This document shows positions 10,160 to 31,061 of a DNA stretch of 64,000 nt, piece after piece (the stretch's first letter is position 1; each line of letters opens with the position of its first letter). The translations under genes were made by a program, and so were the position numbers. The stretch is taken from positions 1 through 64,000 of the forward strand of contig JAHQIW010006080.1 in NCBI GenBank assembly GCA_019055375.1, given 5' to 3'. This stretch comes from Parelaphostrongylus tenuis. Lineage: Eukaryota > Nematoda > Chromadorea > Rhabditida > Metastrongylidae. The notes beneath the pieces are model-generated. The model did no database searches, had not been told where the DNA came from, and worked only from the letters and a program-made list of their open reading frames with translations.

Positions 10160-10193
<34 letters not shown>
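10160..10193. repeat. (TA)n microsatellite
   Basis: A run of about 17 TA dinucleotides. Copy number may be unreliable in the assembly. Confidence 0.95.
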
Positions 10194-10699: not shown

Positions 10700-12010
10700 A
10701 TAGATCGCTAATGTGTTTTTACATCGTAAATACTTTTGAGAAAACTATCGGCACTTCGAAATTCTTAAGGATCACTTGTTGCCCCAATTATCTTCGTGTG
10801 ACGCGAACTGATAAGAGTTTCATTTTTACCTATCAGGTGCAAGAAGTGCGCAAATGTTTGCCTCACTCTCAAAATTTCTGGAGCATCATATCTTTCTTGT
10901 ACGCTCTTCGTAAAAGATTTTTGTCTCCTAAACACACTACGTGTCTGACCCACCTGAATTTCGATAGCCTGGCATGTAGAGCGACATCCTTAATTTTCGC
11001 CCGTTTGACGTAGAAACTTTGGAAACTTTCTCTCATTTGCAAGTTACAAAATACTTCTAGCATCGATGTTATGACTTTAGTTTCATTAACGATGATTGAT
11101 CCCTCATTATCTCCACGTAGCGACCAAGTTCCTGCTGCATACATCAGGACAGGGATATCCGTTAAGTCCAAAACGTGGGCACGAAGTAGGACGTTCTTCG
11201 TCTTCACTATATCATCAATGTTCTCAAACTTTCATCAAGACGTTCGCTTACTCCTGTTCAGCTATGAAGCTAGATCGTTCATTAAATCGACTTTAGTACC
11301 CAGATATGCGTAACTGGAGTATTCGAAGATATTCATTTTGTTCTGAAAGTGACACTGAAAATTTGTCGTGTCTCATAAACATCGCTCTCTTTAGATAGCC
11401 GGTGACCGATCTTTCCACAGGCATTGTCGCAGTTGCTTAACATTCGTAACGCCTGGCTGATGCGTGGTGTCATAATGACGATATCAGCAATAAAGTGAGG
11501 ATGATTTCATTGACGACTGTCGATTTTCGACCCAATATTTTCTTAAGTTACTGTTGGCAAGACATTTTGAAGGATGGCAGTGAATAATTGTGACATGATG
11601 TATGCTCTCTCTAATTCCTCTCCATACTTCAGTAGCAGTATCTTCATGGAATAACGACATTATGGCTGTGAAGTCTTCACATAGCTCTCAAAAATTGGTT
11701 ATGTACTGAGATAGGACGTCATAAAGGTCCGCATCTTCTATAAATGCTATTGTTTTTAAATGAATCCAACGCTTCAAAATAAATAAGGTGACGTAAGTGC
11801 CTCGTTTTCGAAAAACAACACCGTCTAGTTGATTTTCTATTGGTTGGCTCATATCCTGGCAGATAACGAATGGAGAGCCGAGCATTGATTAGAACTGGGT
11901 GTAGTTCTTCAGGTGTTCTCGTCTTGTCATGCTTGGAGCAGCGTAGTCCTAATCTTCACCGACAAAACAGTGTGTTGGATTTCGGAAGGAGGATTTGGTC
12001 TTGTGATAAA
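10700..12010 (-). mobile_element. RTE-clade non-LTR retrotransposon, decayed (left arm)
   Basis: On the - strand the translation resembles the C-terminal part of RTE reverse transcriptases: a 'MYAAGTWSLR' segment (11,207-10,869) corresponds to the family's 'TYAAETWSLRK', and 'WVRHVV' to 'WAGHVMR'. The RT core at 11.4-11.9 kb is visible only in broken frames. Several stops and shifts mean it is dead. It is mirrored by 28,600-30,330, and both copies share changes that other RTE copies here lack (for example 'ccaacacactgttttgtcgg'), so it was part of the duplicated unit. Confidence 0.65.
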
Positions 12011-12359
12011 TCCATCCTCTTTGATCTAATTTGACGATAAGAGGATTGCCTATAGAGGGAAACTTAGTAGAAACCATACATCATTTCCTTCATGGATTTT
12101 TTGAGAGCTCCAAACGTTTCCTCAAATCGCCCTCTTCGGTATGCGGCGTGTAGATGGATAGGTGTAATTAAACAGAAATTACTTTTGCACCGCCCTTTTT
12201 ACCTCTGCAGTCAGTTCCAAATAGCGGGCGATTACAGATTGACAGATGTTAAGATCTTCAGTAATATCTCGTCTAGTCTAATAAAAGCTCACTTTCGATG
12301 ATCACTCAACTGATCACTGTCAATTTCCCATAACTTGCCACTTTAATATTCATCGTTAC

Positions 12360-13200
12360 AGCGCTCTGAAAATAACTTCACTAAGGGCCAATATAGTTTT
12401 GAACTTCATGAAACTTTTGATGTTGATTGGTAAGTAACAATGTAAACAGAAGACCTTGTCTTGCAAGGTACCAAAGCAACAATGCGCAACGTCTGTGAAG
12501 CGTAATTTTATTTCGAAGGCTACAGCGTTGTAAAAAGGCCTTCCTAGAAAAGCAACTACTGGCTCCGGAGACTGGAGAATAATCATTTAATTGCGCTTAC
12601 TTTATGCTAACTCATGAACAACTTGGAGAGCTCCAAACGTGAAAAATCAAATGCTCACGAGTAGTGCCAGTCCCTCACGGAGAGGGCAGCCTGAGGCTTG
12701 ATTGTCTGGGGCGACTTTTAGGCGCTGAGCAGTGTACATGCCACTTAAGTGACTGCAAGGTACTGATCAAACGTGACTCACGGAAAACGGGCAGTAAGAA
12801 TTGGAGCTGTAAAACCACAATTTATAACGTGAATTCAAGAATGCTTTGGAGAGACGCGCGGTCATTTGTGGTCCGCGTTCAGTATGCCATATTCCACTTG
12901 GAAGCACGCTAAGTGCCCTCGCAAGTGATCGGTCAAATCTCTATGTTGGGAAGATCCGTCATGTCTGCTTTAATTTGATCGGTAATATAGCTGAAGTCTT
13001 CCCAATCAATTTCAAGAATTACTCTTTATGTCTGTGTTTGAACCTAGTAGAATGACAAATCTTGGCAATGATACTTTACCGCTGACTGATCCACCACATA
13101 AAAACTGATTGTACCTTCTTCCTTGAGAGACGATATATTACCGATGACGTACCATAGATCGGCCATAAGCGACTTATCATGAGAATCAAAGTCCTCTCAC
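12360..13200. other. Conserved block of the inverted duplication with short open frames
   Basis: Well conserved with 25,835-26,460 and 27,741-27,925 of the right arm. On the + strand a frame at 12,664-12,834 begins MPVPHGEGSLRLDCLG and is kept in the right arm on the - strand. On the opposite strand the reading DLWYVIGNISSLKEEG continuing to VVDQSAVKYH (about 13,190-13,070) is kept in the right arm at 25,831-25,960. Only one of these can be the coding sense. The second looks more protein-like and would be a gene divergent from the methyltransferase. I recognise neither family. Confidence 0.3.
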
Positions 13201-13772
13201 ATTAATCCGGTTTTCAGATGAACTCTTCTCGTGTTGAATTTGTTTTATTCGTTGCGGCAATCCTGTAACTGGTAAATATCACCCGTATAATGTACACTCC
13301 CAGTGCGCAGATGGACAAAATCGGAAGCGAATCAAAAAAGTAGGCGATTTTACTTCTAACCATTGTGCTCGTCTGAGGAGATGTTCATTGTTGCACCAAC
13401 AAAAAATTTCTCTTCAGGCAAACACTATGCCATAATATGCTATTTAGTCAAGTGTTTGTTAGCTAAGTTAAGTGTAAATTATACAAAACATGAAGTTGTC
13501 AAGAAGCGGATTTTTAGCAGTCGAACTGGTAAAACAAAAATTATCTTTGCTTTAAGATTTAGGACTACTTTATCGTAATTACCAAACAATGCATCGAGAC
13601 CACCAGTCTCTCCAAAATAAGTGTGGAACATTTTGGAACAAAAGCGAGGGCAAATTTCTCATAAAGGCAAATCTGTAAGAACTTAACACCTGAATTCCTA
13701 TTTGATCATTCTTCCTCATATTTCGGCTCTATGATTTTATCGTTTTCTTTTTGTATTGAGATTTTTGATCAG

Positions 13773-16106
13773 CCTGCTAAACCCAGCGTCATCACACCAC
13801 TAGGAATCGGAGCGGACGTGACCGCAGAGGAAAAGCTCAAAAAATGCTGCCATCGGTTAAAAAAAAATTTATTCATACCTTAACAAAATATCATTATGCC
13901 GGCCGCACCATTGCTAATTCAAACGCTTAAAGTGCTAGATAATATGTCGCTTTTGACTTGCATCCAGCCTCAAAAGCGGAAAAGCTCTATCGCTTTCCTC
14001 GTATGTGTCTGCGTGTTTGGATATTGAACTTTCGTGAAGAGCAGTTGTAAGCTACGCTGTTTTACAAGAATACAGGCGTTTGCTAATTTTTGTGTGCCAG
14101 TAAGCAGACAGATAAAAAAACATGTTCAATTAATTGATTCACTAAATTGTTGGGTTTCTGTTCTGCTTATCATTTTATAAACGCTATTACTGTATGAACA
14201 TGTTTTTCGGCCGACAATCGCCTGCATTTCAGTATACAGAATTCTTTGGAACGGATCCACTCATGATCTGTCCTAATCATGCAAGTACGAAATCTTGTAA
14301 ACGCAACTTGGATGACATGGAAATACCATCTACCCAAGCTTCACTAGGCACTCTAAAGTTTCTTCATCATTGAGAACATCAAAGAACTTTACACATTAAT
14401 GAAATCTCAGGAACCAGATTTCTTGAATACTCAATAAGAATCATCTCTTCACTTGTTGCGTGAAAGTTTCACGATAGCTGCATAGCTGAGGCAGCTCAAA
14501 GGAATTGCTTTTTTTACAATGATTTATAAGTTTTGGGACACTATGGACCGATTACTATAGAACATATCGACATGCTAATATTTATCAAGAAAATGGTCAG
14601 ACGAAACTTCATCGACTTCATTATTATTGACAATGAAGTACCAGAATATGATATCATTGGGATGATAGGAGTAGATGAATTGTCTGCTGGAAACAATATC
14701 GAATTTTGTCAAGTAAACGTCGAAGTGAGTGTGAATGTAATTTTTTTTGGCATTTTTTTAGTCTTTTACCCAATACACTCTTTATAAGAAGGATAGTTTT
14801 GGGCTGCGTATAACGCAGTTATAAAAAGTATTCTGCGATACTAATCTCTAAGTTCCTTTTCGTACGCAAGCTAGTAATTCTATCCCATAGTAGTGTCTTT
14901 TATGCAGTGATAATCACATACACAATACCACTTCGACACATGTAATAGCCGTTACATGGCATCGTTCGAACTAAATCACTTGATGATCCCAATCTTATTC
15001 AAATCATAACATAATCAAGAGCTAGCTAAACCGATGTTCTAGCCTTTGAACTCTATGCTGTTTTTTTAAACAGTCTATGAGAAGTGTCGCTTTAGTGTGG
15101 CTTAGTAAATTTAGCGTCTAAATTTAGGATAAAAAGAGGGATTAAATGCAAAGGAACTCTCCAAAACTATAATGGTAAGAAGTCGAGTAACGTTTTGTTT
15201 CTTATATAGCTTTGGACGTGTAATAATGTGATTTATAATCACTGGATGATTTGATGATTGAGCATCAAATGTCAAACAAAAGAGTATGTGTAATGACTTC
15301 ATAATCATGTTTTACACCAGTTCAAGCAAGTAGCATAATGATATCGCTAAAAATACCAATCCCTACCATTTTTCATCTATTGTAGATGTCTACCACTGCA
15401 TTGCGTTCTCCACTGATCATGTTTCTTTTATAATAGAACGCGTTTCTGGTTGCCAAAGATTACAGAATAGTATAAAACAGAGATATTTTTACGTAACCTT
15501 CCATGATCAGTGCCTCTATATTTTTTGCACAAGAGCTCATTCTCGGTTTTCCTTATTCGATTTCAGTTTCACGAGCAAGGACCAGAAGAGCGCAAAGCAA
15601 AATTCTCAAAGATCATGCTCGATTTACTTCAAGTTGGTCGCTACGCAGTAATCCGTCATCAGAAGCATGAGTACCAGCTTATGTTTTCTTGTTGACTTTA
15701 AAAATTCTCAATGTGTAGAGAAGTACCTTAAACAATTTCTCACTGACGATTGATTTCAAGAAGTTTTGCTATGTGTTTTTGATTACTGTAAATCATGTAA
15801 CTTTTTTTGACTTCGCTTGACATGATTGAAAACTCAATTGTTTGACTTTTTTTAAGAACTTCTATCTTAGTTTTCTAATTATTTCTTTCGTCTTCACAAA
15901 TTGTATGAATGTCATTCTTTTTTCACCTTCAGTATCAACGTAAATCTAAATTTTCCATTTTCTTGCAGCCAAAGTTTTGTGTCTATTTCATGTCAATAAA
16001 AAGTTGGCCAAATCGATTCCCTCACTCCTTCACTACGCACTCGCTAGTTGAAGGTAGGGGAAGAAATAAAGCTGAGAATGGTGATTTCAACCAAAGTTCA
16101 GGCTGA
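13773..16106 (+). pseudogene. FkbM-domain methyltransferase gene, left-arm copy (broken)
   Basis: Five exons can be read. E1 (13,773-13,855) has the TPLGIGADVTAEEKLKK segment, as in the nematode FkbM motif 'hGIGxDVxAExxLKKMLP'. E2 starts at 14,233 with EFFGTDPL (family FYGADP) and is then cut by a deletion. E3 (14,531-14,724) has IDNEVPEYDII (family IDxEGAEY) and FCQVNVE. E4 (15,567-about 15,787) continues in phase with FHEQGPEERKAKF and GRYAVIRHQKH. E5 starts at 15,969 with PKFCVYFMS. Acceptors are good (tttgatcag, tgcatttcag, cgatttcag, ttcttgcag) and the E3 donor is gtgagt. FkbM proteins are S-adenosylmethionine-dependent methyltransferases; the nematode substrates are unknown to me. A missing A in a poly-A run shifts E1 and an extra T shifts E4. 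The E2 deletion makes it a likely pseudogene. Confidence 0.65.
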
Positions 16107-17403
16107 CTAAGGTCACAATATATGCTACATCGATCTTGTTAACCGGTGGTTGTTCATAACCATTGAGGCCGAGAGATAAGAAGAGTAAGGGTATTTTCGA
16201 TGATGCACTAATATCTATGAAAAGTGTATCGTGTCGTCCAAGGCACCTCGGGTTCTTTCTTTAGCCAGTAGCTTGCTGAGAAAATAAATGAAAATATTGT
16301 TGGTTGGGGAAAGATCGAAGAAGTTTCAACGGCAAGACGAATTCTTTTGTTCTGTAGTTTGATATGTAATTTTTATTACACTATGTGCCAAATCATGCTG
16401 GAACATTCGCTGTGTTGACTGTTATCTTGGAAACGGTGAAACAAAACTACATCAGTAACACCGATATTAACATTAAGGATTAAAACTCATTGTTGTACCA
16501 TACCGTGAATTCCTTATTTGCTGATAACAATGTCGTCGTTCGTGATAATAAATGTTGAAGCAATTATAAATGCATTCATCGCGTTCTCTGCTTCTACGGC
16601 CAAACAACCATTTTTCACAGAAGATAGTTTTCGGGTTTTATTTACCGTAATTATGGGAAGTGCTCTAGTTTACGTAGTTTGTAATATTGCTTTCGCAAAT
16701 GAGTTTACCATTTATCCCCCTCTTTGACAGCTATCAAAACGGTATTATGCTTTTATGCGGCAATAAAGCAGTACATCTATTGACCCTTGTATCTCACTGC
16801 TTAGGCTGAATAATTCAGACCTTGATATCTTTGCATACATATCCAAGTAGGATAGATTAGGGGAAGTTTCATCTTTTCTATGTAGCCATTTCAGCCTATA
16901 TTCACAGAAGTCTGCTTCATCTTAGTTTCGTAGTATTCATTGCTGGCAAATTTTTATATGAAAAAGTTATTCTCAAGACTTGATCTTTTGTATGTCTTTT
17001 TGCGTAAGATTGTAAATTATTCATTCATCTCTGAGATAAGAGTAATGATATAATATTTGAGATGTATTGCTCATGCAATAGCTAACATAAAAGATTTGCT
17101 TTTTCATCTTTTTAGCTGATACCATCAATGATTTGACAGAGTCTAAATAACATCTAGTTGAACTATGGAAAGGTGAAGGGATGTGTTTTCTAGTCATATA
17201 AAAAATGATACGTATCAGTTGCTAGGTTTCCTTTTCAAAATTTGAAGAGCAGAATTCCACTTGATTTTGTTCACAAAATACCAGGCTTGGAAAGAAAGTT
17301 CTAGGCACTTCGATAAGTCAGAAATGATTTTATCTGACCGCCGCTTGCGGCGTTATGATGACACGATATACACAATAGTGTGGAGTGCTGTGCAAAAGCG
17401 TTT

Positions 17404-17475
17404 GCGTCAGTCTGGCTTCGAACCCAAATCTCACTCATTCCGGGAGCGTATGCTAACCGTTGCACCACTGACTCT
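17404..17475 (-). repeat. tRNA-derived SINE
   Basis: On the - strand the head reads GTCAGTGGTGCAACGGTTAG (A-box region) and TTGGGTTCGAAGCC (B box), ending GACTGACGC, which can pair with a start like that of the 60.6-kb copy. It is followed by the shared family tail (aaacgcttttgcacagcact). The tail and dispersed occurrence make it a SINE and not a tRNA gene. It lies in the left arm only, near where the inner part of the duplication becomes irregular. Confidence 0.65.
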
Positions 17476-17654
17476 GATAAGTATGAGATATCTTTCGTGC
17501 ATGTTATGAGAGCATTTAGTTTCTTATGTGACATTTATCTCACTGAAGATCTAGATATTTTCGTCATTGTGAATTTGTTACGAGCCTTCGCCATGTCCAT
17601 GACGCAATCAAAGTTCGTGTTCTATTGTGTCACTATTGAAGGAAGGGTCTTTAA

Positions 17655-18094
17655 AAGTCTAGCTGAAGATCAATCTTTCCATAGGCATTATCGAAATCGG
17701 TCAACATTTGTTCCCCTTGGCTGATGTTTGGTGTTATGAGAACGATATCGTCAGCAAAGCGAAGATGGTTTAATTGTCGTCCGTCAATTTACACTCCGAT
17801 TTCGTCCCACTAATGTTCGCATGACGTTTTGTAGGGTGGCAGTGAATAGTTTTGGCGAAATTGTTTCGCCTTATCGAACCCTTCCTCCAACAACGTCAAT
17901 GGTGATGTTGTTGTAAAATGGAGATATTCTGGTCGTGAAATCTTTATAAAGCTCACGAAGGATCATTATGTACCGAGTAGGGACGCCCTGGTTATCCAGA
18001 GCCTCTATAACCGCTTGTTTTCCACTGAATCAAAAGCTTTCTCCAGGTCGATGAAAGTGAGACTGAGTGGTTGTTTGTACTCTCGTGAAACTTC
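17655..18094 (-). mobile_element. RTE retrotransposon fragment (RT core)
   Basis: The - strand encodes in broken frames the reverse transcriptase A motif FIDLEKAFDSVE (near 18,060-18,020), a 'PLSLT' lead-in, and further on the region around the catalytic box (the related copy reads LRFADDIVLI; here the box lies at about 17,760-17,730 with 'gctgacgatatcgttctcat' in reverse complement). It is truncated at both ends and frameshifted. It ends just where the inner inverted repeat begins at 18,096. Confidence 0.75.
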
Positions 18095-18095
18095 A

Positions 18096-18440
18096 AACAA
18101 AGAGTACAACGATATAAATTTCTTAGTTTTGGCAATCATTTCAAAATTTACAGTAGTGAGTGTAAATTAGAAGGCAATAAATATTTTAGAAAATTCTGGT
18201 TTTTTACTGCATTTTTAGGCAGTGTTATTATGTTTCATATACACCTAAAAGAATGAGTGGTGAGCAAAATTGCGACCTCAGACGGGAGTGGAACAAGAGT
18301 TTTATCCATACCGGGGACGCGTGATAACACTACACCACCAAGACATAATGGCACCACCACTCGTTCTTCAATATCCTATGGATGGATGCCCCGGTAGAGT
18401 CCATACTAAGAATGAAGTCTCGGATACAACAATATTCTAA
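18096..18440 (-). repeat. Inner inverted repeat, left copy, with SINE-B
   Basis: It pairs with the reverse complement of 19,245-19,592 over about 345 bp. Inside is a tRNA-derived SINE of a second family (called SINE-B here) on the - strand, with an A-box region like 'tggtagcacgcgtcc' and a tail 'ctcaccactcattcttttag'. The two copies differ by scattered substitutions and small indels. This is the innermost matching segment of the large duplication. Confidence 0.85.
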
Positions 18441-18454
18441 ATTTTGCATAAGTC

Positions 18455-18800
18455 TTCCCAGTCTTTTCTTGCAGCCAAACTATTGTGTCTTTTTTATGTC
18501 AGTAGAAATCCTTCACTACACACTCGATAGTTGAAGGTAAGGGAAGAAACTAAGCTGAGAATGGTGTTTTAACCAAAGTTCAGCGTGACTAAGCTACACA
18601 CCGATATATGCTACATCGATCTTGTTAACCGGTGACTGTTCATAACCACTGAAGAGATTATATTACGGCCGAGCGATAAGCACAGTAAAGGTGTGATCGA
18701 CGACTCATCAATATCCTTAAAAGAGTATTAAGTCGTCCGAAGGCACCTCAGATTCTATCTTTATCCTGTGGCTCACTGAGAAAATAATTTGAAATATAAA
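18455..18800 (+). repeat. Extra direct copy of methyltransferase exon 5 and 3' flank
   Basis: Matches 15,955-16,300 in the same orientation and 21,960-22,295 in reverse. It starts with 'cttttcttgcag' and then a third exon-5-like frame (18,475-18,534, PNYCVFFMSVE to a stop). Shared landmarks are 'tgctacatcgatcttgttaa' and 'gttcataacca'. The copy sits just inside the inner inverted repeat, in the spacer, so the locus has three copies of the gene's 3' end but two of the rest. Confidence 0.8.
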
Positions 18801-18959
18801 ATTAAGTAAAAGTAGCGGCTAAAGAGACGGTGGAAATAAAGGAATTCCGTTTGATCATCGTTACCCAATATCTGTCAGCATCAGTGGGTTCAGTGTCGAT
18901 ATCGACTACCCATGCCATACCGTTGACGGTAAGTTGATGACAGATAGATGAGTTGTAGC

Positions 18960-19095
18960 GCAGAGAGAAAGGTTGCAAAACAGGCGTGGTGATACAAAGG
19001 ACAGAGTACGCTTGCCCGGATAGGGTGACATACGGGTTCAAGTCCAGATTGTTTTACGTGGAAGTTTTCTAAGCACTCTTCATCAGTGGGTATAG
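18960..19095 (+). repeat. tRNA-derived SINE in palindrome spacer
   Basis: It contains 'acagagtacgcttgcccgga', a B box in 'acgggttcaagtcc', and the family tail 'aagttttctaagcactcttc' then 'atcagtgggtata', as in the copies at 10.4, 17.4 and 60.6 kb. It is more diverged than the 60.6-kb copy. Confidence 0.5.
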
Positions 19096-19244
19096 TTACA
19101 GCAATAGATAAAAAAGTGTATAATAAATTTACAAAATAGGCTTCCTTTGGCCTTTATAGATTAGGAAAGTTGACTGCTAAGATGCTCATCAATGCTCGCA
19201 CACGTTCCCACTGCAATTTTATCCTAAGAGCGGCCAAAGAAGTT

Positions 19245-19592
19245 CAATGCGATTCTACACCAGAGCATCGAGTATCCGAAACTTCATTCTTGGTATGGAC
19301 CCTACCGGGGCATCCATCCATAATATGTTGAAGAACGAGTGGTGGTGCGACTATGGCTGTGGTGATGTAGTGGTAGCACGCGTCCCGGTGTGGATAAAAC
19401 TCGTGTTCGACTTTCCGCCTGAGGTCAAATTTTTGCTCACCACTCAGTTCTTTTAGGCGTATATGAAACAAAATAGCACTGCGACACCAGAAATTTCTAA
19501 AATATTTATTGCCTTTTAATTTCCACTCACTACTATGAATTTTTGAAATGATTGCCAAAACTGAGAAATTTATATCGTTATATTCTTTGTAC
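19245..19592 (+). repeat. Inner inverted repeat, right copy, with SINE-B
   Basis: Partner of 18,096-18,440. The SINE-B is in + orientation: 'gatgtagtggtagcacgcgt' carries the A box, 'actcgtgttcgactttccgc' the B box, and the tail is 'tgctcaccactcagttcttt' then 'taggcgtatatgaaac'. A long open frame across it on the - strand is a by-product of the repeat and not a gene. Confidence 0.85.
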
Positions 19593-19599
19593 AACTTAC

Positions 19600-20740
19600 T
19601 ACAATCAGGTGAATCCCAACAACAGAATAATTATGTATCAAGAAAGGACTTCTTCTTCGTACAAAAACATAAAAAACATGTAATGTCTCATAGAAATACA
19701 TGGGGCGTAAGAGTATTAGGTTGAAAGGAAGTGTGTGTGCGGCACTTGGTAAAAACTAAAAATTTGTGCATGATTTTCCAAGCAGAAACTATACTTACTG
19801 CTCTTTGAAATAAAGGCCATATTTTTTCTACGACTTTCTGCCATTGGTCTACCAAATTTCGGATCAAGTCAAACATCACACTCCTTCGACCTCGAATCAA
19901 AGAGCTCTTGACTTGTTTGTTTAGCTTCATCACACGATTCAAATCGGACGTTCTGAACGAGACTTGTCTTCGAGGTCGGTCCTTGGCATTAAGAAGCGTT
20001 CAAATTGGCGTACAGCAGTAGATTTGCTTATTGTGCCTTCCTCTTCAATTCCGTTGACCACACCAATTACGGTTCACTATGAAAGAGTCCTTCTTCAATA
20101 ATGACACAATGCAACACGAATTTCGATTGTGTCGTTGGACATGGCGAATGCTCGTAACAAATTCAAAATAATGCCAAATAGTATTTAGATCTTCAATGAG
20201 ATGGATGCTACAAGACATGCAAGAGACTACAATGTTCTCGCAATATGAATGACAGCTATCGCAGACTTATTATAGTGCCTAGAACTTTCATTCCAACCCT
20301 AGTACATTATGGGCAAAGCCAAATGGAATTCTGTCCTCAGGATTTTGAAAAGAACCTAGCAACTGATACGTATAATTTTTTCTCATGTAGCTAGAAAACG
20401 CATCCCTTCACCTTTCCATAGTTCAACTAGATGTTATATAGAGTTCGTCAAATTTATTCGTTGTATCATCTAGAATGATGAAAAAGTAAGCTTTTGTATG
20501 TTAGCTATTTTCACGAGTAATACATCTTGAATTTTCTGTCATCACTCATTTTCTCAGAAGTAAATGAATAGTTTTTCATCCTACGCAAAAGGGCATAGAA
20601 AAGATCAAGCCATGAGAATAACTTATAAATAATTTTTATATAAAAATTTGCTTGCAAAAAACACTATGAACTAAGATGAAGCGGACTTCCGTGAATAAAG
20701 GCTGAAATGGCTACACAAAACAAGATAAAACCTTTTATTA
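19600..20740. other. Right-arm inner region without a gene
   Basis: From about 20,255 outward it matches the left arm (20.27-20.47 kb with 17.12-17.33 kb; 20.64-20.72 kb with 16.87-16.95 kb). The part at 19,600-20,250 has no clear left-arm partner and no recognisable gene or element. Confidence 0.5.
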
Positions 20741-21370
20741 TTATTAGAGCCAACTTGTCATATGGTCTGGTAAGGGCTTCTTGTACAGCCCGATACACGT
20801 GTTTCGTCCCTTCAGACTCGTCAGTAGGGCAGAACCCGTCGTCTTTCGATATTCTTCATGCTCAGTTCTCTTTGGAGGTCTACTCCCTCACAAAGAGTCA
20901 TCAAAGACGAACGTTTATACACTCTATGTCAAGTGAAATTTTCACTTAACACAGAGTGTTCGCGGCACTCGATTGTTCGTTGGCAGGTATCTTTATCAAA
21001 TTAAACTTTATTTCGAGTGCTTCATTAAGACCGACGCTCAAATCTCAATAGATCCTTTCATTGTTATTTGAGCCAACTTGTCATGTGGTCTGGTAAGGGC
21101 TCTCTCTGTTAGGTGAGAATTTCTCTTGACATAAGGTGTAAGACGTTTCTCTTTAGATGACTCTCTGTAGAGGAGTAGGGTTCCCGAGAGAACTGACTAT
21201 AAAAATATCAAAAAGACGGCGGTTCTGCCCGACTGACTAGTCTGTAAGGACGAAACACGTGTATGGGGTTATACAAGAGCCCTTATCACACCGCATGACA
21301 AGTTGGCTCATATAATAATGAAAGGATCTATTGAAATTTGAACGTGGTTTTAATGAAGCACTCGAAAGGT
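20741..21370. mobile_element. Fold-back (long terminal inverted repeat) element
   Basis: Present in the right arm, absent from the left, which jumps straight across the site. Flanking 'ataaaacctttt' occurs at both ends (about 20,727 and 21,373) and looks like a target-site duplication. The ends share 'gagccaacttgtcat' and 'acacgtgtttcgtcc' in inverted form, and matching continues inward through 'cagttctctttggag' and 'cttatgtcaag'-type segments. A nested third copy of the terminus occurs near 21,065. No transposase is encoded. A relative lies at 58,164-58,570. Confidence 0.75.
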
Positions 21371-22229
21371 ATAAAACCTTTTCTTAATCTATCCTTCGTG
21401 GATATGTATGCAAAGATATCAAGGTTTGAGTAATTCAGCCTAAGCAGTGGGAAAAGCTTAGTAGATGTACTGCTTTATTACCACATAAAAATGTAGTACC
21501 GTTTTGTTAGCTGTCAAAGAGTGGGATAGATAGTAAGCTCATTTGCGAAACCGATCTTTGAACTACTTAACTAGAGCACTTCTCACAACTACAGTAAATA
21601 TAACCTGAAAACTATCTTTTATGAAAAGTAGTTGTTTGGCCTAGAAGAGAAGAATGCGGTGAATGCATTTATATTTGCTTCAACGTTTATTACGACGAAC
21701 GGCGGCATTGTTATCAGCAAATAAGTAGTCCACGTTATCGGTACGACAATGAATTTTAATCCTTTATCTCAATATCGGTGTTACCGATGTAGTCTTGTTT
21801 CACCGTTTCCAGGATAACAGTCAACACGGTGAATGTTCCAGTATGATTTGTACAAAGCGTGCTAAAAATTGCGAATCAAAGTATAAAACAAAGAAATTCG
21901 TCTTGCCGTTCCAACCTTCTTCGATCTTTCCGCTTACCAACAATAATTTTAATTATTTTCTCAGTAAGCCACCGGCTTGAGATAGAACCAAAGATGCGTT
22001 TGGACGACTCAATGCTCTTTTCATAGGTATTTGTGCATCATCGATCACACCCTTACTATGCATATCTCCCAGAAGTATATAATCTCTTCTATGGTTATGA
22101 ACTATCACCGGTTAACAAGATCGATGTAGCCTACATTGATGTGTCCCTAAGTTTGGTTAAAATCACCATCTCAGCTTTGTTTCTTCCCCTACCTTCAACT
22201 ATCGAGTGTGTAGTGAAGGGGTGAAGGAA

Positions 22230-25039
22230 TCAATCTGACCAGCTTTCTAGTGACATGAGAAGGACACAATACTTTGGCTGCAAGAAAAGATTGAGAAGAC
22301 TCATGCAAAATATAGAAAATATCGTGGTGATATTGAAGGCGAGAAAAGACTGACATTCATACAATCTGTGAAGAAAAGAGAAATAAATTCGAAACTAAAA
22401 TAGAAATTCATAAACAAGTCATACAAGTAAGTTATCAATCATGTCAAGCGAAGTCAAAAAAGTTACATAATTTACAATATTCAAAAACACATAGCAAAAC
22501 TTCTCAGAACAGTCGTCACTGAGGAATTGTTTGAGATACTTTTTTACACATTGGGGATCTTCAAAGTCAACAAGAAACATAAGCTGGTAACCATGCTTCT
22601 GATGACGGATTACAGCGAAGCGACCAACTTGAAGTAAATCGAACATAATCTTTGAGAATTTTGCTTTGTGCTTTTCTGGTCCTTTATCGTGAAACTGAAA
22701 TCGAATAAGGAAACCGAGAATGACCTCTTGTGCAAAAAATGTAGAGGCCCTTTGTGATGGATGTTTATGTAGAAATACCGGTATGTCACACTATCTATAA
22801 TCTTTGGCAACCGGAAACGTGTCCTATTTTGAAAGAAACATGATCAGTGGAGGACGCAATGCAGTGGTAGACATCTACAATAGATGAAAAATGGCAAGGA
22901 TTGGTATTCTTAGCGATTTCATTATGCTGCTTACTTGAACTGGTATAAACATGACTATGAGGTCATCATACATCTCACTTGTTCGACAGTTGTTGCTCAA
23001 TCATCACCACCCAGTGATTATAAATCACATTATTACACATCCAAGGCTATATAACGATACAGAATGATACTCGACTTCTCAGATCCAAGCCTCATTATTA
23101 CTTTATTGAAGATCATTATAATTTTGGAGGGATCTTTTGCATTAGATCCTACTTTTGTCTCAAATCTAGACGCTAAATTTACTAAGCTACACTGAAGCAA
23201 CAATTCTCATACAATGGTTAAATAACAGCCTATAGGGCAGAGGCTAGAACATCAGTTTACCCAGCTTTTGGTTATGTAATGTTTCGAATAAGATTGGGAT
23301 CATCAGGTGATTTAGTTCAAACGATGCCATGTAACGGCCATTACCTGTGTCAAAGCGCTATTGTGTATGTGCCTATCATTGCATAAAAGAGTAGTACATT
23401 GTCACTACTATAGAATAGAATTGTTTTCTAGCTTGCGTGCGAGAATTAACCTGAAGACTAGTATCGCACCATACTTCTTGCAATTGTGCTATATACAGCC
23501 TAAAATTATCCTTCATATAAAGATTGTATTAGGTGAATAAGGAAAAAATTGCAAATAACACATTCACACTCACTTCGACGTTTATTTGACAAATCACGAT
23601 ATTGTTTGTAGCAAACAATTCATCCACGGCTATCACCGGAATGATATCGTATTCTGGTACTTCGTTGTCAATAATAACGTAGTTGATGGAGTTTGTCTAA
23701 CTATTTTCTTTATGAATTTTGGCATGTCGATATGTTCTATAGTAGTCGGTCCATAGTGTCCCAAAACTTTAAATCATAATAAAGAAAACAATTCCTCTGA
23801 GCTGCCTCAGCTATGCAGCTATCGTGAAACTTTCACGTAAAATGTGAAGAAGTGATTCTTATTGAGTATTCAAGAAATCTGGTTCCTGAGATTTCATTAA
23901 TATGCAAAGTTCCTTGATGTTCTTAATGATGAAGAAACTTCAGAGTGCCTAATGAAGCTTGTGTAGATGGTATTTCCATATCATCCAAGTTGCGTTTACA
24001 AAATTTCGTACTTGCATGATAAGGACAGATCACGGCAGAAAAGTTTTTTAGGAAAATCATAACCGTTTTTCATTCAAGTACTGATTTATCTTGAAAAATG
24101 AGGAAGAGAAAAAATATACTAAATAAACGATGAGTATGTTGGGGATATTTCCACACATTCTCGTCGTCTTCATAGCCGATTGATCAGAGAGATGCTTCAC
24201 AGTAGTTCGTTCTCGTTGTGAACTTCATTTTAGTTTTGTTAATGTCGGATCTTCTTTGAAGAATGTTTGTTGATCATATTGATTGTCCGACACATTGTTT
24301 TTCAATGAATATTTGATATTGCAGCTGCCGGCATTCATATTCGCCCGTACTTAGGGCAATGGGAACTTAAAAAGTGGTTTCCGTCAATCCACGACATATC
24401 ATCCACAAGCAGTCATCATGAAAAACAAATATTTTGAGTCACCGAGCATGAGACTCGTACGAAACGGAGGCAAAGACTGTGACAAGGATGAGCGGCTGTG
24501 GAACATCGGGTCGGATCAATTGAATTTGAAGAGGGCAAAACGCGGTGATGCTAATGTGGCGAATGCATGAGTTTCTTCCATGAGATTCGTGCTTTCGTTT
24601 TATCAATAAGGAATATTGATCGGTCCGTGATGCAAAATATGAAGAGAAGTCAGTTTTCAAGTTACCGTTAGGAGAGTAAAGAAATACCAACCTACTCTTC
24701 TTTTTGCCCTGGGAGGATAGAAAAATAATAAAAAGTGTGAAGTTAGCTTTTCGCAACAGTATTAATATAATGTAACAGCCGCGAAGGTCGCACTATTTGA
24801 TAATGGTAATATGAAGCGCGGAACAAACGGGCATTTTGCACTTTTCGGGTTTTGATATGAGAGTTCAAACATCTAAATGCTAAATTTCAAACTTCCATCA
24901 AGTTGCTCAAGAAGCTAAGAAAAACTGCCTCCTTGGTACCGTTCTTTGGACAGACAGCAACTCGAAAGAAAGTTCTCATTTCTTCAAAGAGTTCGGAATT
25001 GTGAACAATGAGTAGATCCGCTCTAAAGAATTCTATATT
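22230..25039 (-). pseudogene. FkbM-domain methyltransferase gene, right-arm copy (broken)
   Basis: Inverted paralogue of 13,773-16,106. E2 (24,925-25,039; 115 bp) reads EFFRADLLIVHNSELFEEMR then FFRVAVCPKNGTKEA, matching the family's FYGADP...ELY...FFPFAVG stretch. E3 (about 23,575-23,768) has IDNEVPEYDIIPVIAVDELF and ICQINVE before a gtgagt donor. E4 (22,476-22,694; 219 bp, phase 0 to 0) is fully open, with FHDKGPEKHKAKF and GRFAVIRHQKHGYQLMF. E5 (22,230-22,277) reads PKYCVLLMSLESWSD to a stop. Exon lengths and phases agree with the left copy. E1 is deleted (about 310 bp missing), a one-base loss shifts the start of E3, and no canonical donor follows E2. The E2-E3 intron carries extra DNA. 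Good acceptors precede E4 and E5. Probably a pseudogene unless E1 lies elsewhere. Confidence 0.65.
24439..24708 (-). CDS. Candidate exon, unknown protein, inside right-arm insertion
   Basis: A strong acceptor (tttctatcctcccag) precedes an open frame of 90 codons that starts GKKKSRLVFLYSPNGNLK and ends before a stop at the low-coordinate end. It falls in a block that the left arm lacks and sits in the intron between methyltransferase exons 2 and 3. It does not resemble the FkbM family. The other strand also has a coding-like stretch here (GGKDCDKDERLWNIG), so sense is not settled. It may be part of an inserted element. Confidence 0.3.
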   Translation of the reverse strand, partial: GKKKSRLVFLYSPNGNLKTDFSSYFASRTDQYSLLIKRKHESHGRNSCIRHISITAFCPLQIQLIRPDVPQPLILVTVFASVSYESHAR

Positions 25040-26739
25040 TTGAATGCAGGCGATTTTCGGTCGAAAAAACATGTTCATAAAGTAATGTCGTTTATAAATT
25101 AAGAAGCACATTAAAAAACCCATCAATTTAGTGAAACAAAGAATTAAACATGATCTTTTTTTCTGCCTGCTTATTGGCAAAAATCTCAACACGAAAAGAA
25201 AACGATAAAATCATGGAGCCAAAATGTGAATAAGAATGATTAAATGGGAATTCACGTGTTCAGTTCTTACAGATCTGCCTTTCATAAGGAATTTGTCCTC
25301 ACCTTTGTTCCAAATGTTCCACACCTATTTTGGAGAGACTAGTGGTCTCGGTGCATTGTTCGATAATTACGTTAAAGTAGTCCTAAAACTTGAAGCAAAG
25401 ATAATTTTTGTTTTACCACTTCGACTGCCTAAAAACTCGCTTCTTGACAACTTCATGTTTTGTATAATCTACCTTAATTTAGCTAACTAACACTTGACTA
25501 AATAACATATTATGGCATAGAGTTTGCCTGAAGAGAAATTTTTTGTTGATACAACAATGAACATCTCTTCGGACGAGCACAATGGTTAGAAGTAAAATCG
25601 TCTACTTTTTCCGGTTCGCTTCCGACTTGTCCATCTGAGACATAGCGCATAGCCTCCAATCCATGAATGCCGCAGTTACTGCGGACTTCGATGCTGATGA
25701 ATGATTTCCACTGGGAGTGTACATTATACGGGTGATATTTACCAGTTACAGGATTGCCGCAACGAATAAAACAAATTCAACACGAAAAGAGTTCATCGAA
25801 AAACCGGATTAATTGTGAGAGAACTTTAATTCTGATGATAAGTCGCGTATCGCCGATCTATGGTACGTCAACGGTAATATATCGTCTCTGAAGGAAGAAG
25901 GTACAATCAGTTTTTATGTGGTGGATCAGTCAGCGGTAAAGTATCATGCCAAGATTCATCACTGTACTAGGCTCAAAACACAGACATGAAGAGTAATTTC
26001 TGAAATTTGGTCATGAAGACTTCAGCTTTATTACCGATCAAATTAAAGTAGATACGACGGATCTTCCCAACATAGCGATTTGACCGATCACTTGCGAGGG
26101 CACTTAGCGTGATTCCAAGTGGAATTTGGCATTTTGAACACGGACCAAAAATGACCACTTGTCTTTCCAGAGCGTTCTTGGATTCACGGTGTAAACGCTC
26201 TGCTTTTACAGCTCCAATTCTTATTGCTCATTTCCCGTGAGTCACGTGTGATCAATACCTTGCAGTCACTTGAGTGGCATGTACACTGCTTAGCGCCTAA
26301 AAGTCGCCCCAGACAATCAAGCCTCAGGCTGCCCTCTCCGTGAGTGACTGGCACTACTCGTAAGCATTTGATTTTCACGTTTGGAGCTCTGCAAGTTGTT
26401 TGTGAGTTAGCATAAAGTATTCGCGATTAAATGATTATTTTCCGGTTTCCGGACCCAGTGGTGCCTTCCGATGCTTCAGCTTGGAAAAGAATAGCTACTG
26501 AGAGGCTGCAAAATATTTCAAAACATTTACTTCTGGCTTTTCTAGATTCTAGTTTGATCTAGATTGATTCTATATCGCCTAATAAACGCCACTCTTCTTA
26601 GCAACAGATTTCGGACGAAAATCAAAATTACTTGAAGATTGAAAAAATTGGTACTTCTTTGTTGTTGGAAAGGCACATTAGAGGAAGAAACTTCCTGTGG
26701 GCAAAGGGTTTTTACTGAACTAATAATCTATCGAAAAGC

Positions 26740-26834
26740 TGAATTTGGGAGAAATCCCCTGTCTGGGTGAAACGTGGGTTTGACTCCCTTCTGAGGTCGT
26801 ATTTTTGCTGACCACTCAATTCTCTTAGGTTTAT
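26740..26834 (+). repeat. SINE-B fragment, 5' truncated
   Basis: It contains a B-box-like 'cgtgggtttgactccc' and the SINE-B tail 'ttgctgaccactcaattctc' then 'ttaggtttata'. It abuts the RTE 3' end directly, which suggests that the SINE and the RTE share a 3' tail or inserted together. Confidence 0.5.
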
Positions 26835-27663
26835 AGCATCATCACCTGTATCACCTGTCGTCCCGTTGATCGTCGAGTGACTCGAGCGGGTACCAGCAAC
26901 TCTTCCATTTTTCCCTATCGCGTGCAAGAGTAGCCCAGTGGGACCTCCTTGCTCTAGGAATTCGCTGAGCATCATATCTTTCTTCCATCGCTTTCGTGAA
27001 GAAATCGGACCAACGGGTCAGTGGTCTTCCTTTAGAGCGCTTGACGTCCCGAGGAATCCAGTCGGTAACGGCTCTCGTCCATCGGTTGTCGTTGAAGCGC
27101 ATCACGTGTCCGGCCCACCTTATTTTCGATATCCTGGCGTGTAGAACGGCGTCTCTGATTTTCGATCGTTGACGTAGGTCGGAAGTTCGGATCCTTTGTC
27201 TCATTTGCGAAATACGGGATACTCCTAGCATCGACCTTTCGACTGCGCGTTCGATAACGGCAAGTGATCTTTCATTCTGCTTACGTAGCGACCAGGTTTC
27301 TGCTGCATACGTTAGGGCAGGGATAATTGTCGAGTCGAAAAGGTGGGCACGGAGTCGGATGTTCTTTGTCCTCTTCACTACATCTTCGATGCTCTTAAAC
27401 GTTCCCCAAGCCGCTCGTTTCCTCCTGCTCAACTCTGGGAATAGGTCGTTCATCATGTTGATTTCACGACCTAGATAGGTGTAACTGGAGCATTCGGAAA
27501 TTGTCGTTCCGTTGAGCGTGAATGGGGCATTAGAAACCCATCCGTTCCTCATGAACATTGTTCTCGTTAGGTTCAGTTGAAGACCGATCTTTCCACAGGC
27601 GTTATCGAAATCAGTCAACATTCGTTCCGCTTGGCTGATGTTTGGTGTTATGAGAACGATATC
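26835..27663 (-). mobile_element. RTE retrotransposon, 3' half, longest open frame of the window
   Basis: A 274-codon open frame (27,675-26,851) covers the RT region from the strand after the catalytic box (SDIVLITPNISQAERML) through the conserved C-terminus: TYLGREINMMND, LRAHLFDSTIIPALTYAAET, RWAGHVMRFNDNRWTRAV, DWIPRDVKRSKGRPLTRWSD, then a stretch ending near DDQRDDR. This is typical of RTE-1-like elements of strongylids. It is 5' truncated, as usual for non-LTR elements. It inserted in the right arm only (left arm empty near 12,541-12,560). The nearly intact frame suggests that it is among the younger copies here. Confidence 0.88.
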
Positions 27664-28599
27664 TGAAAAAAGCACTAAATCATTAGAATCCTTGAATATT
27701 GAATCTAGGATAATTTGGAAATGTATTTGCTGTTCTACGAAGGCCCTTTTACACGCTGTAGCATTCGAAATAAAATTATGTTATACATACGTTGCGCATC
27801 TTCGCTTTAATACCTTGCAAGACAAGGTTTTCTTGCTTAGATTGTTACTTACGAATTAACATCATGAGCTTGATGAATTTCAAAACTATATTTGTCCTTA
27901 GTAAAATTATTTTCAGAGCGCTGTAGCGAAGAAAATGAAAGTGGCAAGTCATGGGAAATGACAATGATCAGTTATGTGATCATCGAAACTGAGCGTTTTG
28001 GAGGCTAGACGATATGTTTCTGAATGTCTTAACACCTGCCAATCTGTGGTCGATCGCCATTTGCAACGGACTGAAGAGGTAAAAAGGTTGTTGCAAAAGT
28101 AATTACTGTCTAATTACACCTGTCAGACATCCACACTCGCATACCGAACGCCTCAAGTTGAGCAAACCGACTACAAAATTTTGCTTTACTTTCAATATTT
28201 GCCGAACCTTGAGCTCACCGATCACCACTCCTCAAGCATGGCGACTATTGTAGGGAAAACATTTGCACAACCAATAGAATGTAGCAAATCTTTCCAAGAG
28301 TTTGTCGAATCCCGATGCATCAGTTTCCATATCACAGAAAGAAACGGGCTTCTTTCTTGTTGCCAATTATCTATTGATTGTTATGATTCTCATTTTGATT
28401 GGAGAGCTTAGATTGAGCCTACTTTCAATGATCTGAAAATTCTAGATGTGCGGCCGGCGCTACTTTTGCGTCAGCCTGAAATCCTCAAGCTTTAGTCGTT
28501 TTGGTTAGACTCTCAAATTTTAGTCCCAACTAAATTTGTCACTCTTGAGTCATGCTTTCTATTGAAAAAATAATTCTGATTTTGTTTTAGATGCTGTTC

Positions 28600-30330
28600 A
28601 ACTGTTGTTGAGCATCGTAAGTCTTGAAGAGGGTGTCGCTGTTTACGACATTTCCAGAATATCTTGACCGCTTGGTGATCTAGTCAAGTCATGAGCAAAG
28701 CTGAAAAGATGACGAAAGAGTTTGCAAAGCATTTTGAGGCTTTGCCAAGTACAACGGAGGTTGACTGCACTAGGAAACCTTGACGAAACACTTGCAGCTG
28801 TCAAAATGTCTATGAAGGATGATATATGATTTATACCCCGTTCTCCTTAAGAGACAGTCCTCCCTCCTATACTCAAATCAAATAAAGAGGATAAATTTAC
28901 TCTATTTTAAATTTTTTCTTCTGAAATCCAACACACTGTTTTGTCGGTGAAGAATAGGACTACACTGGTCCAAGCATCACAAGACGAGAACACCTAAAGA
29001 ACTACACTCAGTTCTCATCAATGCTCGGCTCTCCATTCGTTACTTGCTACGATATGAGCCAATCAATAGAAAATCAAAAAGAGGGTGTTGTTTTCGAAAA
29101 CAAGACACTTACGACATAGTCAATTATTGCCGAATCTGTTTGTTGTCCGCCTGTTCGAACTCTTCACTCGAGTCATTCTATATGGGATAAATAGAATAAG
29201 GGACAAAGGACAGCCATGCGAATAAATAGTTTTTTCGAACATGACTTAATGCCACAGACTGCATTCACGCGATAACAAGCATTAGTAGGATGCCACGAGT
29301 GCAATAGACCATTCTGTTACACCTCATTTAATTTGAAAAATTCTTTTTGATTCGTAGTAGAGTCATTTATAGAAGATGTGGACATCCATGGCGTCCTATC
29401 TCATTACCTTACTAATCTTCAAGAGCTATGTAGAAATTTCACACCATAATATAAATATTCTATGACGATTTTGCAACTATGTAAGATGAAGAATTCAAGA
29501 GAGCATTACGTCTCGTCTAAATTATTCACCGCCATCCTTTAAAACGTCTTGCCAGCACTAGCGTAAGAAAATATTGAGTGGAAAATCGACAGTCGTCAAT
29601 GAAATTAACCCCAATTCATCGCTTATATCATAACACCAAGCATCAGTCAAGCGGAACGAATGTTGAAAGGTTCCCGCAATGCCTGTGGAAAGTTCGGTCA
29701 CCGGCTAAATCTAACGTGAACGATGTTTATAAGAATGGACAAAATTTCAGGGCCCTTTTCACAATTAACAAAATGAAGATCTCCGATTACTCCACTTACG
29801 TAATCTGGGTACTGAAGTCGAGTTACTGAACGATCTAGCTTCATAGCTGAGCAGGAGTAAGCGAACGTCTCGAGGAGAGTTTAAAAAACATTGATGACGT
29901 AGTGAAAAGACGAAAAAGTCCTACTTCGTGTCCTCCTTCTCGATTAAACGGATATCCCTGTAATGATGTATGCAGCAGGAACTTGGTCATTACGTAAACA
30001 TAGATAATTCATTGTTACTGAAATCATAGTCATAACATCGATGCTAGAAGTATTTGTAAATCGCAAGTGAGAGAAAGTTAGCGAAGTTTCTATGTCAACG
30101 GGCGAAAATCAAGGATGCCGTTCTACATGACAGGCTATCGAAAATACAGTGGCCCCCACACGTATCGCTTAAGAGGCAAAAATCTTTCACGAAGAGCGTA
30201 CAAGAAAGATATGATGCTTTAGAAATTTTAAGAGCGAGAGGGACCTCTGCGCTCTTGCACCTAATAGAAAAAAATGAAACTGTTTTCAATTCGAGTCACT
30301 TGAAGATAAACGGGTCAGACATATAAAAAT
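28600..30330 (+). mobile_element. RTE retrotransposon, decayed (right arm)
   Basis: Mirror of 10,700-12,010. Recognisable stretches are 'gaaagagtttgcaaagcatt' (region between endonuclease and RT), the segment ending 'tgttttgtcggtgaagaata', 'caagcatcagtcaagcggaa' (which corresponds to SQAERM) at 29.64 kb, and 'gtatgcagcaggaacttggt' (YAAGTW) at 29.97 kb. Frames are broken throughout. The match to the left arm is closer than to the other RTE copies. Confidence 0.65.
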
Positions 30331-31060
30331 GATCAAAATTATTGCGATTTCGGTTACGACACAAATATCTGCGCCTTCATATCTCATTAGCATATCAAGT
30401 CCCCGTTGAAAATGTCCTTCCTTTTCTTGAAATCTGGATGACTGACATTAGGAAGTTTCTCGTTGTTCACTACAGGGTAACGGCATATTTTTGGTTGGGG
30501 AAGCTTGTTGCGTTGCAGGCAGGATCTTCTTCAAATGGAATTGGTCCTGTATTTTAAAGATCAACCAATCGAGGGCAATGCAGCATGTTTGATTCCATCA
30601 TTTAGGCTCGGATTTTGTTCCAAGCTATGATCGCTTTCCTCATGTTATGCTAAGAACATTTCTAAACCAGATCTAGACTAGACGGGTAATAAAAAGATTA
30701 CTTTTGGCTATTGTCAATTTAAAGTCAAGTAATTGTGGTGGGCAGAAGTTAGATTATTTCATATCGATCCACGCATCGATCTACCATGCATACAATTGTA
30801 ATGATTGTAGAAATCATGAATGCATGATTCATCAAACAGTGACGTGTTGTGCTCATACTCTCACCGAATGGTTCTTAACCTCTTTCAGAATTTAGCACCT
30901 AAATGACAAACAGTGAGGGAAGAGATTGTTTAACGTTCTGCGCACGAGATCGAACTAATGACTAAGTGCATATATCCTGCTATCACTATATGCGCCTCAA
31001 ATTTTTTTCCAAACACTAGTGTGGTTTTCAAATGAAAAAATTCACAATCTTTTTTGCTCA
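30331..31060. other. Intergenic, no feature seen
   Basis: AT-rich stretch just outside the large duplication. No repeat, SINE or coding exon was recognised. Confidence 0.5.
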
Positions 31061-31061
31061 C

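What the first reader, a model, noticed from the sequence alone, without database searches (positions are those of the whole stretch)
10700..30330. Diverged giant inverted duplication, about 20 kb in all
A left arm of about 7.7 kb and a right arm of about 11 kb match in inverted orientation around a spacer of about 0.8 kb. The arms differ by many substitutions, by insertions private to one arm and by deletions private to the other. A fold-back sequencing artefact would give near-identical arms, so this is either an old genomic palindrome-like duplication or two divergent haplotypes joined head to head.
Basis: partly seen in the sequence, partly recalled or inferred. Interest (0 to 1): 0.75.

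Follow-up and report, generated by a model that had tools for sequence, protein, structure and literature searches.

The report
Old palindromic gene duplication in brainworm
A roughly 20-kilobase stretch of the deer brainworm genome holds an old, decayed mirror-image duplication that carries two facing copies of a methyltransferase-like gene; it looks inherited rather than a sequencing fold-back, but it is a member of a known kind of structure.

Summary
Arms 10780-18427 and 19272-30317 are colinear in inverted orientation (9 blocks, 957 substitutions in 6679 sites, ts/tv 1.47) around 844 bp. The worm part of the window is Parelaphostrongylus tenuis or very close kin: a gene from related contig C3250 is a P. 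tenuis protein on an 88,033-bp contig, C3250's exact length. Mid-arm DNA has seven full-length copies in the 481.5-Mb assembly, on four contigs. All four carry the same diverged central junction, though C3251 keeps only about 46 bp beyond it. Insertions mark the two arms separately, and partly recur in that arrangement on C3251. So the inverted duplication is probably inherited, not a fold-back read or a one-off haplotype join. Each arm carries decayed exons of an FkbM-like methyltransferase, facing each other. Some tracts look converted. Cautions: this contig fuses about 7.1 kb of host-like DNA to worm DNA, and its own join at 18426/18427 was not seen on the other three contigs. Whether the four versions are alleles or paralogues is open. 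Ordinary in kind; moderately interesting in detail.

The parts
10780..18427 (+). Left arm of the inverted duplication
   Evidence: Colinear inverted match to 30317-19272
19272..30317 (-). Right arm of the inverted duplication
   Evidence: Colinear inverted match to 18427-10780
18428..18797 (+). Extra partial copy of the arm segment near 15958-16297, lying in the spacer; its join to the left arm at 18426/18427 was not seen on the other three contigs
   Evidence: 74.7% to 15958-16297, 89% to C3251:182790-183163, distances, sequence at the join
18798..19271 (.). Spacer proper; with the adjoining inner arm and the start of the mirrored arm it forms the centre shared by four contigs
   Evidence: Four-contig alignment; genome search
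14545..14724 (+). FkbM-like methyltransferase exon, left copy
   Evidence: tblastn with P0126
15555..15750 (+). Last exon of the FkbM-like gene, left copy (frame broken in the assembly)
   Evidence: tblastn with P0126; exon alignment
22512..22736 (-). Last exon of the FkbM-like gene, right copy (open frame)
   Evidence: tblastn with P0126; exon alignment
23574..23693 (-). FkbM-like exon, right copy (frame broken elsewhere in the exon)
24962..25042 (-). Weak FkbM-like exon match, right copy (E 0.11)
25599..25718 (-). FkbM-like exon, right copy
31041..31202 (-). More distant FkbM-like exon in the right flank
   Evidence: 45% identity, E 6e-11
24033..25007 (-). 975 bp present in five of five comparable arms on the other contigs (in C3251 split by an RTE); missing from the left arm at 14264 (left-arm deletion)
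13768..14094 (+). 327 bp present wholly in four and partly in two copies on the other contigs; missing from the right arm (right-arm deletion)
20725..21384 (.). Fold-back (hairpin) element found at this site in the right arm only, with a 12-bp flanking repeat
26841..27673 (-). Young RTE-type retrotransposon fragment found at this site in the right arm only; the left arm has also lost several hundred bp around the site
17320..17470 (-). tRNA-derived SINE-like insertion; at this site also in the A-side arm of C3251, absent from the right arm, C3250 and C3963
28149..28779 (.). 631-bp segment absent from the left arm, C3250 and C3963. On C3251 about 152 bp of it lie next to flank C, and about 434 bp lie in a third, displaced arm piece beyond flank A
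10756..11759 (-). Old RTE remnant at the outer end of the left arm
28884..30317 (+). Old RTE remnant at the outer end of the right arm
12550..14510 (+). Stretch where the two window arms are most alike (6-13% different per 250 columns, in the parts compared); candidate arm-to-arm conversion
15316..15749 (+). Tract of 434 bp with no substitution (a few gap columns) against the right arm of C3250, between bins 8-24% different
8376..10192 (+). Flank A, homologous to the same flank on C3251, C3963 and C3250
30318..33325 (+). Flank C, shared with C3251; 30400-31390 has no other full-length match among the 40 of 90 candidates scored
1..7100 (.). Host-like (probably deer) DNA fused to the worm contig; not part of the duplication but bears on how far the contig can be trusted
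   Evidence: CpG o/e 0.18-0.58 in the fourteen 500-bp bins to 7000, 0.65-1.48 in the seven bins from 7501 to 11000; log-odds switch at 7405; 7109-7628 is 78.6% identical to worm contig C3963

Best explanation
This is an inherited, old inverted segmental duplication in a metastrongyloid worm (P. tenuis or close kin). One segment, carrying a multi-exon FkbM-like methyltransferase gene, was copied in inverted orientation beside itself, giving a palindrome with convergent gene copies. Shown here: the geometry, the shared centre, the polarised insertions and deletions, the exons. Inferred: the copying event was a single one, by break repair or replication template switching; it predates the split of the four versions now in the assembly; afterwards the arms drifted to about 14% substitution, took retrotransposons, SINE-like and fold-back elements, lost pieces independently, and exchanged short tracts by gene conversion. 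In the window's version the centre was rearranged again: read from the right it matches the common centre, but at 18426/18427 it switches into a second full arm, as if the unflipped and flipped arrangements of the centre had been joined.
For: Geometry and divergence. Seven full-length mid-arm copies in 481.5 Mb, on C4034 (2), C3250 (2), C3963 (2) and C3251 (1); all 17 candidates were scored. The same inner-arm/spacer/mirrored-arm junction on all four contigs. The SINE-like insertion is at the same site in the left arm and the C3251 arm and absent from the right arm, C3250 and C3963; about 152 bp of a 631-bp right-arm segment lie next to flank C on C3251. Trees agree for 16300-17319 (left arm with C3251, 100/100; the right-arm row holds 579 of 1020 sites) and for 11789-12401 (right arm with the C3251 C side, 99/98; 337 bp). 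C3250 is itself a diverged palindrome, and C3250 and C3963 share an insertion of about 1 kb at one site of the mirrored arm (beginning seen). Exons of P0126 in both arms. Conversion-like tracts.
Against: The other contigs come from the same long-read assembly; the published P. tenuis assembly used two pooled worms. C3251 keeps only about 46 bp of the mirrored arm past the junction, and the 631-bp segment also occurs in a third, displaced arm piece there, so it is not a clean C-side marker. The window's join at 18426/18427 is private to this contig, and the contig is chimeric with host-like DNA 3.7 kb outside the left arm. In 14264-16023 the copies form a near-star and the two window arms are not resolved from C3251; in 12550-13767 the two window arms are each other's closest relatives (100/99), which fits conversion but also a second local event. 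The 434-bp tract could also be a consensus error.
Confidence: 0.65

Rival explanations
1. A real palindromic locus exists, but this contig is a chimera of two of its versions: the assembler joined the left half of one arrangement (A-arm-inner) to the right half of the flipped arrangement (spacer-inner-arm-C) carried by another haplotype or paralogue.
For: The join at 18426/18427 has about 2 bp of overlap and is not found on the other three contigs. In 16300-17319 the two arms belong to different groups. The contig already holds one cross-species chimera. Two worms were pooled.
Against: In 12550-13767 the two arms are each other's closest relatives (100/99). C3251 independently shows A and C on opposite sides of the same centre.
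Confidence: 0.24
2. Two divergent haplotypes of an unduplicated locus were joined head to head; there is no palindrome in the genome.
For: Arm divergence (14%) is similar to that of two tested right-flank stretches from their one other long-matching version (85-87% identity; 40 of 337 and 40 of 354 candidates scored). A strongyle worm, H. bakeri, is reported to carry many hyper-divergent haplotypes (PMC10682056, abstract and passages).
Against: The centre junction recurs on three other contigs; C3250 is also a diverged palindrome; homology stops at 10780/30317, and the flanks 7171-10779 and 30318-64000 share only short pieces, the longest 119 columns.
Confidence: 0.06
3. Fold-back sequencing or amplification artefact.
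For: PacBio reads of average Phred 8 were used for the published assembly.
Against: 14% substitutions with ts/tv 1.47, kilobase indels, some with flanking repeats, an 844-bp spacer. The source paper mentions no whole-genome amplification (parts 1 and 2 of 3 of its text read).
Confidence: 0.01
4. The arms are two insertions of one large dispersed mobile element.
For: Arms are rich in transposon remnants and end in RTE fragments.
Against: Full-length mid-arm DNA was found on four contigs only (the tool skips very common words); no convincing target-site duplication at the outer ends.
Confidence: 0.03

Closest known systems
Inverted gene-pair repeats of Caenorhabditis kept across species (Zhao et al. 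2007, PMC1803023; passages seen)
   Same: Nematode; paralogous genes in inverted repeats with a spacer; convergent pairs occur; the structure is older than the divergence of the versions; gene conversion invoked; decay of the inverted repeat is described in one species.
   Different: In the passages seen, intergenic arms are 124-160 bp (2.2 kb of palindromic arms for one locus) and mostly above 95% identical; here the arms are 8-11 kb, mostly non-coding, and 14% diverged.
Adjacent inverted gene duplicates of C. elegans (Katju and Lynch 2003, as cited in PMC4546093; passages of the latter seen)
   Same: New duplicates in a nematode often arise as adjacent inverted loci.
   Different: Those are young gene duplicates; this is an old, transposon-riddled segment.
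Hyper-divergent haplotypes of Heligmosomoides bakeri (PMC10682056; abstract and passages)
   Same: Strongyle parasite; alternative versions too divergent to align well.
   Different: The passages I saw describe no palindrome; allelism is not shown here; 'FkbM' and 'methyltransferase' do not occur in that paper's main text.
Human Y-chromosome palindromes (PMC3723533, search listing and start of abstract only)
   Same: Large inverted arms with gene conversion; rare inversions appear in that paper's title.
   Different: Those arms exceed 99.9% identity; these do not. The donors of the P. tenuis assembly were two female worms.

Membership tests
Inverted segmental duplication (palindrome) | Two colinear arms in inverted orientation, multi-kilobase | tested here: met
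Inverted segmental duplication (palindrome) | Present in the genome, not made by assembly | tested here: inconclusive
   Supported by four contigs sharing the centre and by arm-specific insertions partly recurring on C3251; no reads were available
Inverted segmental duplication (palindrome) | Not a dispersed mobile repeat | tested here: met
   7 full-length mid-arm copies, all on four contigs, 17 of 17 candidates scored
Palindrome under concerted evolution | Arms more alike to each other than to orthologous arms | tested here: inconclusive
   Met for 12550-13767, not met for 16300-17319; C3963 arms have 6 substitutions in 39 kb but that contig may be a graph artefact
Fold-back read artefact | Near-identical arms, no real spacer | tested here: not met
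   14.3% substitutions, 844-bp spacer
Hyper-divergent allelic haplotypes | Versions occupy the same place on homologous chromosomes | tested here: inconclusive
   Two right-flank stretches (within 46.5-56.5 kb) match C3251 within 267-278 kb at 85-87%, but on C3251 that flank lies on the other side of the palindrome
FkbM-type methyltransferase (PF05050) | Pfam match above the curated cut-off | tested here: met
   P0126, the C3250 gene model, 31.9 bits against 22.7; exons in both C3963 arms and the left C3250 arm over the cut-off. The window's own exons are NOT among the six hits; they are assigned only by similarity to P0126, and the right-arm last-exon ORF gave no Pfam hit
FkbM-type methyltransferase (PF05050) | Methyltransferase activity | not testable with these tools
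   Needs an assay

The most novel reading that the evidence does not exclude
The four contigs are four deeply divergent structural haplotypes (two pooled diploid worms give four) of one palindromic FkbM gene locus: one with large near-identical arms, one with decayed arms, one with an arm mostly deleted, and one with a rearranged centre. They would be kept apart by long-term balancing selection while still exchanging short conversion tracts, so that inverted arms and alleles together feed the diversity of a gene family.
Probability: 0.2. Interest if true: 0.65.

Novelty: new member of a known kind. Interest (0 to 1): 0.4.

Why it matters
If real in reads, it is a datable palindrome in a wildlife parasite, with outgroup copies that let insertions, deletions and conversion tracts be assigned to an arm. 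That makes testable how inverted arms decay or are kept alike in nematodes, and whether decayed palindromes or divergent haplotypes inflate long-read parasite assemblies. It also warns that this assembly holds at least one host-worm chimera and a contig that mirrors itself.

Tried and rejected
Fold-back read artefact: rejected on ts/tv, large indels and spacer. Large transposon with giant terminal repeats: rejected, no convincing outer target-site duplication (one 7-bp match, one copy of which lies inside the right arm, and one 6-bp match) and full-length mid-arm DNA on four contigs only. Coding signal from substitution periodicity alone: no clear 3-base pattern; the gene was found later through an open frame on C3250. 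Pfam on ten window ORFs: one RT hit of ten, below the curated cut-off, nothing for the rest. Rfam: no hits. Host identity of the first 7 kb by protein search: 5 weak unnamed hits, so 'ruminant' rests on CpG depletion, on ParaRef's report of white-tailed deer contamination in the P. tenuis genome (PMC12548146, one passage) and on my recall of a ruminant SINE translation. Literature: no paper of the held library has both 'Parelaphostrongylus' and 'palindrome'; 'FkbM' with 'nematode' gave 2 papers, seen as listing only, neither of which looked relevant; of the 5 shown of 4,276 none is about nematodes by its title.
Full report
What was checked. A colinear inverted chain links 10780-18427 to 30317-19272, with 844 bp between the arms. 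Over nine of 12 alignment blocks (three cross-matches dropped) there are 957 substitutions in 6679 sites, ts/tv 1.47, K2P 0.161; blocks range from 9% to 21% and differ more than chance allows (chi2 60.7, 8 df). Of 74 single-base gaps counted, 27 lie in runs of 3 or more, against 20% of bases, so part of them may be consensus error; the substitutions and the large indels are not of that kind.

Where it is from. A retrotransposon ORF in the right arm is 96% identical over 90% of its length to a P. tenuis protein. The window is contig C4034:1-64000 of an assembly held as 481.5 Mb in 5105 contigs. A gene model from related contig C3250 (88,033 bp) is P. tenuis KIN20_024307, whose contig is listed as 88,033 bp. 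The published assembly is given as 491.3 Mb in 7,285 scaffolds (7,414 in another table), so the held copy is not identical to it in size; it was made with Flye from PacBio reads of two pooled female worms from one deer, 23x, average Phred 8 (PMC10940269, parts 1 and 2 of 3 of the text). The first ~7.1 kb are CpG-poor like vertebrate DNA and the rest is not, so the contig is probably a host-worm chimera; ParaRef reports white-tailed deer contamination in this genome (PMC12548146, one passage).

Relatives. The centre 18300-19200 has long matches on three other contigs, C3963, C3250 and C3251; the other hits listed fall in one stretch of the query, about positions 526-805 (window 18.8-19.1 kb), and look like a common repeat. 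Only 40 of 2936 candidates were scored there. The mid-arm 14300-15900, with all 17 candidates scored, has seven full-length copies: two each on C4034, C3250 and C3963 and one on C3251; the 11 further rows are exon-sized or smaller. C3250 is a diverged palindrome with arms from roughly 24-44 kb and 48-72 kb, its blocks 72-89% identical (shown with floors of 72% and 400 bp). C3963 mirrors itself from end to end, with 6 substitutions and 57 gaps in 39 kb; it may be a recent palindrome or one graph edge walked twice. C3251 keeps one nearly complete arm, the centre and flank C, with most of the mirrored arm gone, and a third, displaced arm piece beyond flank A.

Why the duplication looks inherited. 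All four contigs carry the order inner arm - spacer - start of mirrored arm, each diverged from the others; on C3251 only about 46 bp of the mirrored arm remain. Outgroup copies polarise the indels: a 975-bp segment is lost from the left arm only; a 327-bp segment from the right arm; a fold-back element and a young RTE fragment sit in the right arm only. A SINE-like insertion is shared by the left arm and the C3251 arm and absent from the right arm, C3250 and C3963. About 152 bp of a 631-bp right-arm segment lie next to flank C on C3251, and the segment is absent from the left arm, C3250 and C3963; but another 434 bp of it lie in the displaced C3251 piece, so it is not a clean marker of the C side. 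Taken with the tree of 11789-12401, the two arms seem to have been distinct before C4034 and C3251 parted. C3250 and C3963 likewise share an insertion of about 1 kb at one site of the mirrored arm: one alignment of 14.8 kb runs through it.

What is odd about the window's version. Read from its right side it follows the common centre down to about 18432; then, with about 2 bp of overlap at 18426/18427, it enters a second full arm. I did not find this join on the other three contigs. It equals the left half of one arrangement attached to the right half of the flipped arrangement. A real event and an assembly join between versions both fit.

Genes. P0126, an FkbM-domain methyltransferase model (31.9 bits, cut-off 22.7), finds two exons in all seven mid-arm copies. 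In the window the left copy runs rightwards and the right copy leftwards, so they converge. P0126's first exon falls in RTE-like sequence, so the gene model is not reliable at that end. Frames are broken in several copies; in a draft from low-quality reads this cannot be read as pseudogenes with certainty. For the last exon, 61 codons, dN/dS is 0.29-0.60 in 14 of 15 pairs; the 15th pair, left arm and C3250 right arm, has one difference. For the other exon, 46 codons, it scatters from 0.09 to 1.22 over 15 pairs, so purifying selection is suggested by the last exon only. PF05050 gave six exon hits in the assembly (16 of 16 candidates scored), on C1181, C3963 (2), C3251 (2) and C3250, none of them in the window; DNA similarity adds exon-sized pieces on C1135, C3252 and C2194.

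Exchange. The left arm and the right arm of C3250 have no substitution over 15316-15749, apart from a few gap columns; the 60-column bins outside differ by up to 24%. The window's two arms are closest to each other in 12550-13767 (9.2%, against 12-16% from the left arm to the rest) and in the first 250 columns from 14264 (7%), but not beyond. Gene conversion is the natural reading; mis-polishing by reads of another copy is not excluded.

Alleles or paralogues. Flank C (30400-31390) has one other full-length match, on C3251 (85%; 40 of 90 candidates scored). Two right-flank stretches have one other long-matching version each, 87% for most of 46000-48500 and 85% over 54000-56500, represented at the end of C3251 and the start of C2675 (40 of 337 and 40 of 354 candidates scored). 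On C3251 they lie 73-84 kb beyond the A side, whereas on C4034 they lie beyond the C side; and C4034 35.4-79.3 kb has only 15 scattered matches of 150 bp or more in C3251 145-174.8 kb. This argues against simple allelism of C4034 and C3251, or for a tandem or rearranged cluster. The count of four contigs fits four haplotypes of two worms. I leave it open.

Comparison. Inverted gene pairs with conversion are known in Caenorhabditis (PMC1803023, passages), young C. elegans duplicates are often adjacent and inverted (stated in PMC4546093, passages), and misassembly is a stated source of false palindromes (PMC7953838, passages). The structure is a new member of that kind, larger and more decayed.

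Noticed in passing
window 1-7100: CpG-poor, vertebrate-like DNA (probably deer host) fused to worm DNA; a translated stretch near 3100-3450 resembles a ruminant SINE by recall.
   Followed up: partly
window 6320-7160: A long purine-rich stretch turning into a pyrimidine-rich stretch right at the host-worm switch; the self-BLAST listed no match there.
   Followed up: no
C3963:1-82061 (L019-L021, L009-L011, L022-L024): A contig that is a palindrome from end to end (6 substitutions in 39 kb) around a 3.9-kb centre: either a very recent palindrome or one graph edge walked twice.
   Followed up: partly
C3251:165003-173867 (L015): A separate inverted repeat, 3.7-kb arms 97.5% identical, next to flank C.
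   Followed up: no
C3250:4245-7951 and 20174-23989 (L025, L027); C3251:188675-190601 and 197565-199450: Further inverted repeats of other ages (92% and 93% identical) on the same contigs.
   Followed up: no
C3251:267684-278098 and C2675:6-10426: The end of C3251 and the start of C2675 match the same two window stretches in opposite orientations with like identity, as if contigs break at another palindrome centre.
   Followed up: no
window 10377-10481, 17368-17472, 60572-60689: tRNA-derived SINE-like copies; such copies may help explain the 9,623 tRNA genes annotated in this genome.
   Followed up: no
window 58175-58601: Relative of the fold-back element that interrupts the right arm.
   Followed up: no
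P0101: A protein annotated in the shrew Sorex fumeus, on a 91.5-Mb contig, is 69% identical to the worm RTE over 65% of the query; a worm-shrew retrotransposon transfer is known to me by recall only.
   Followed up: no
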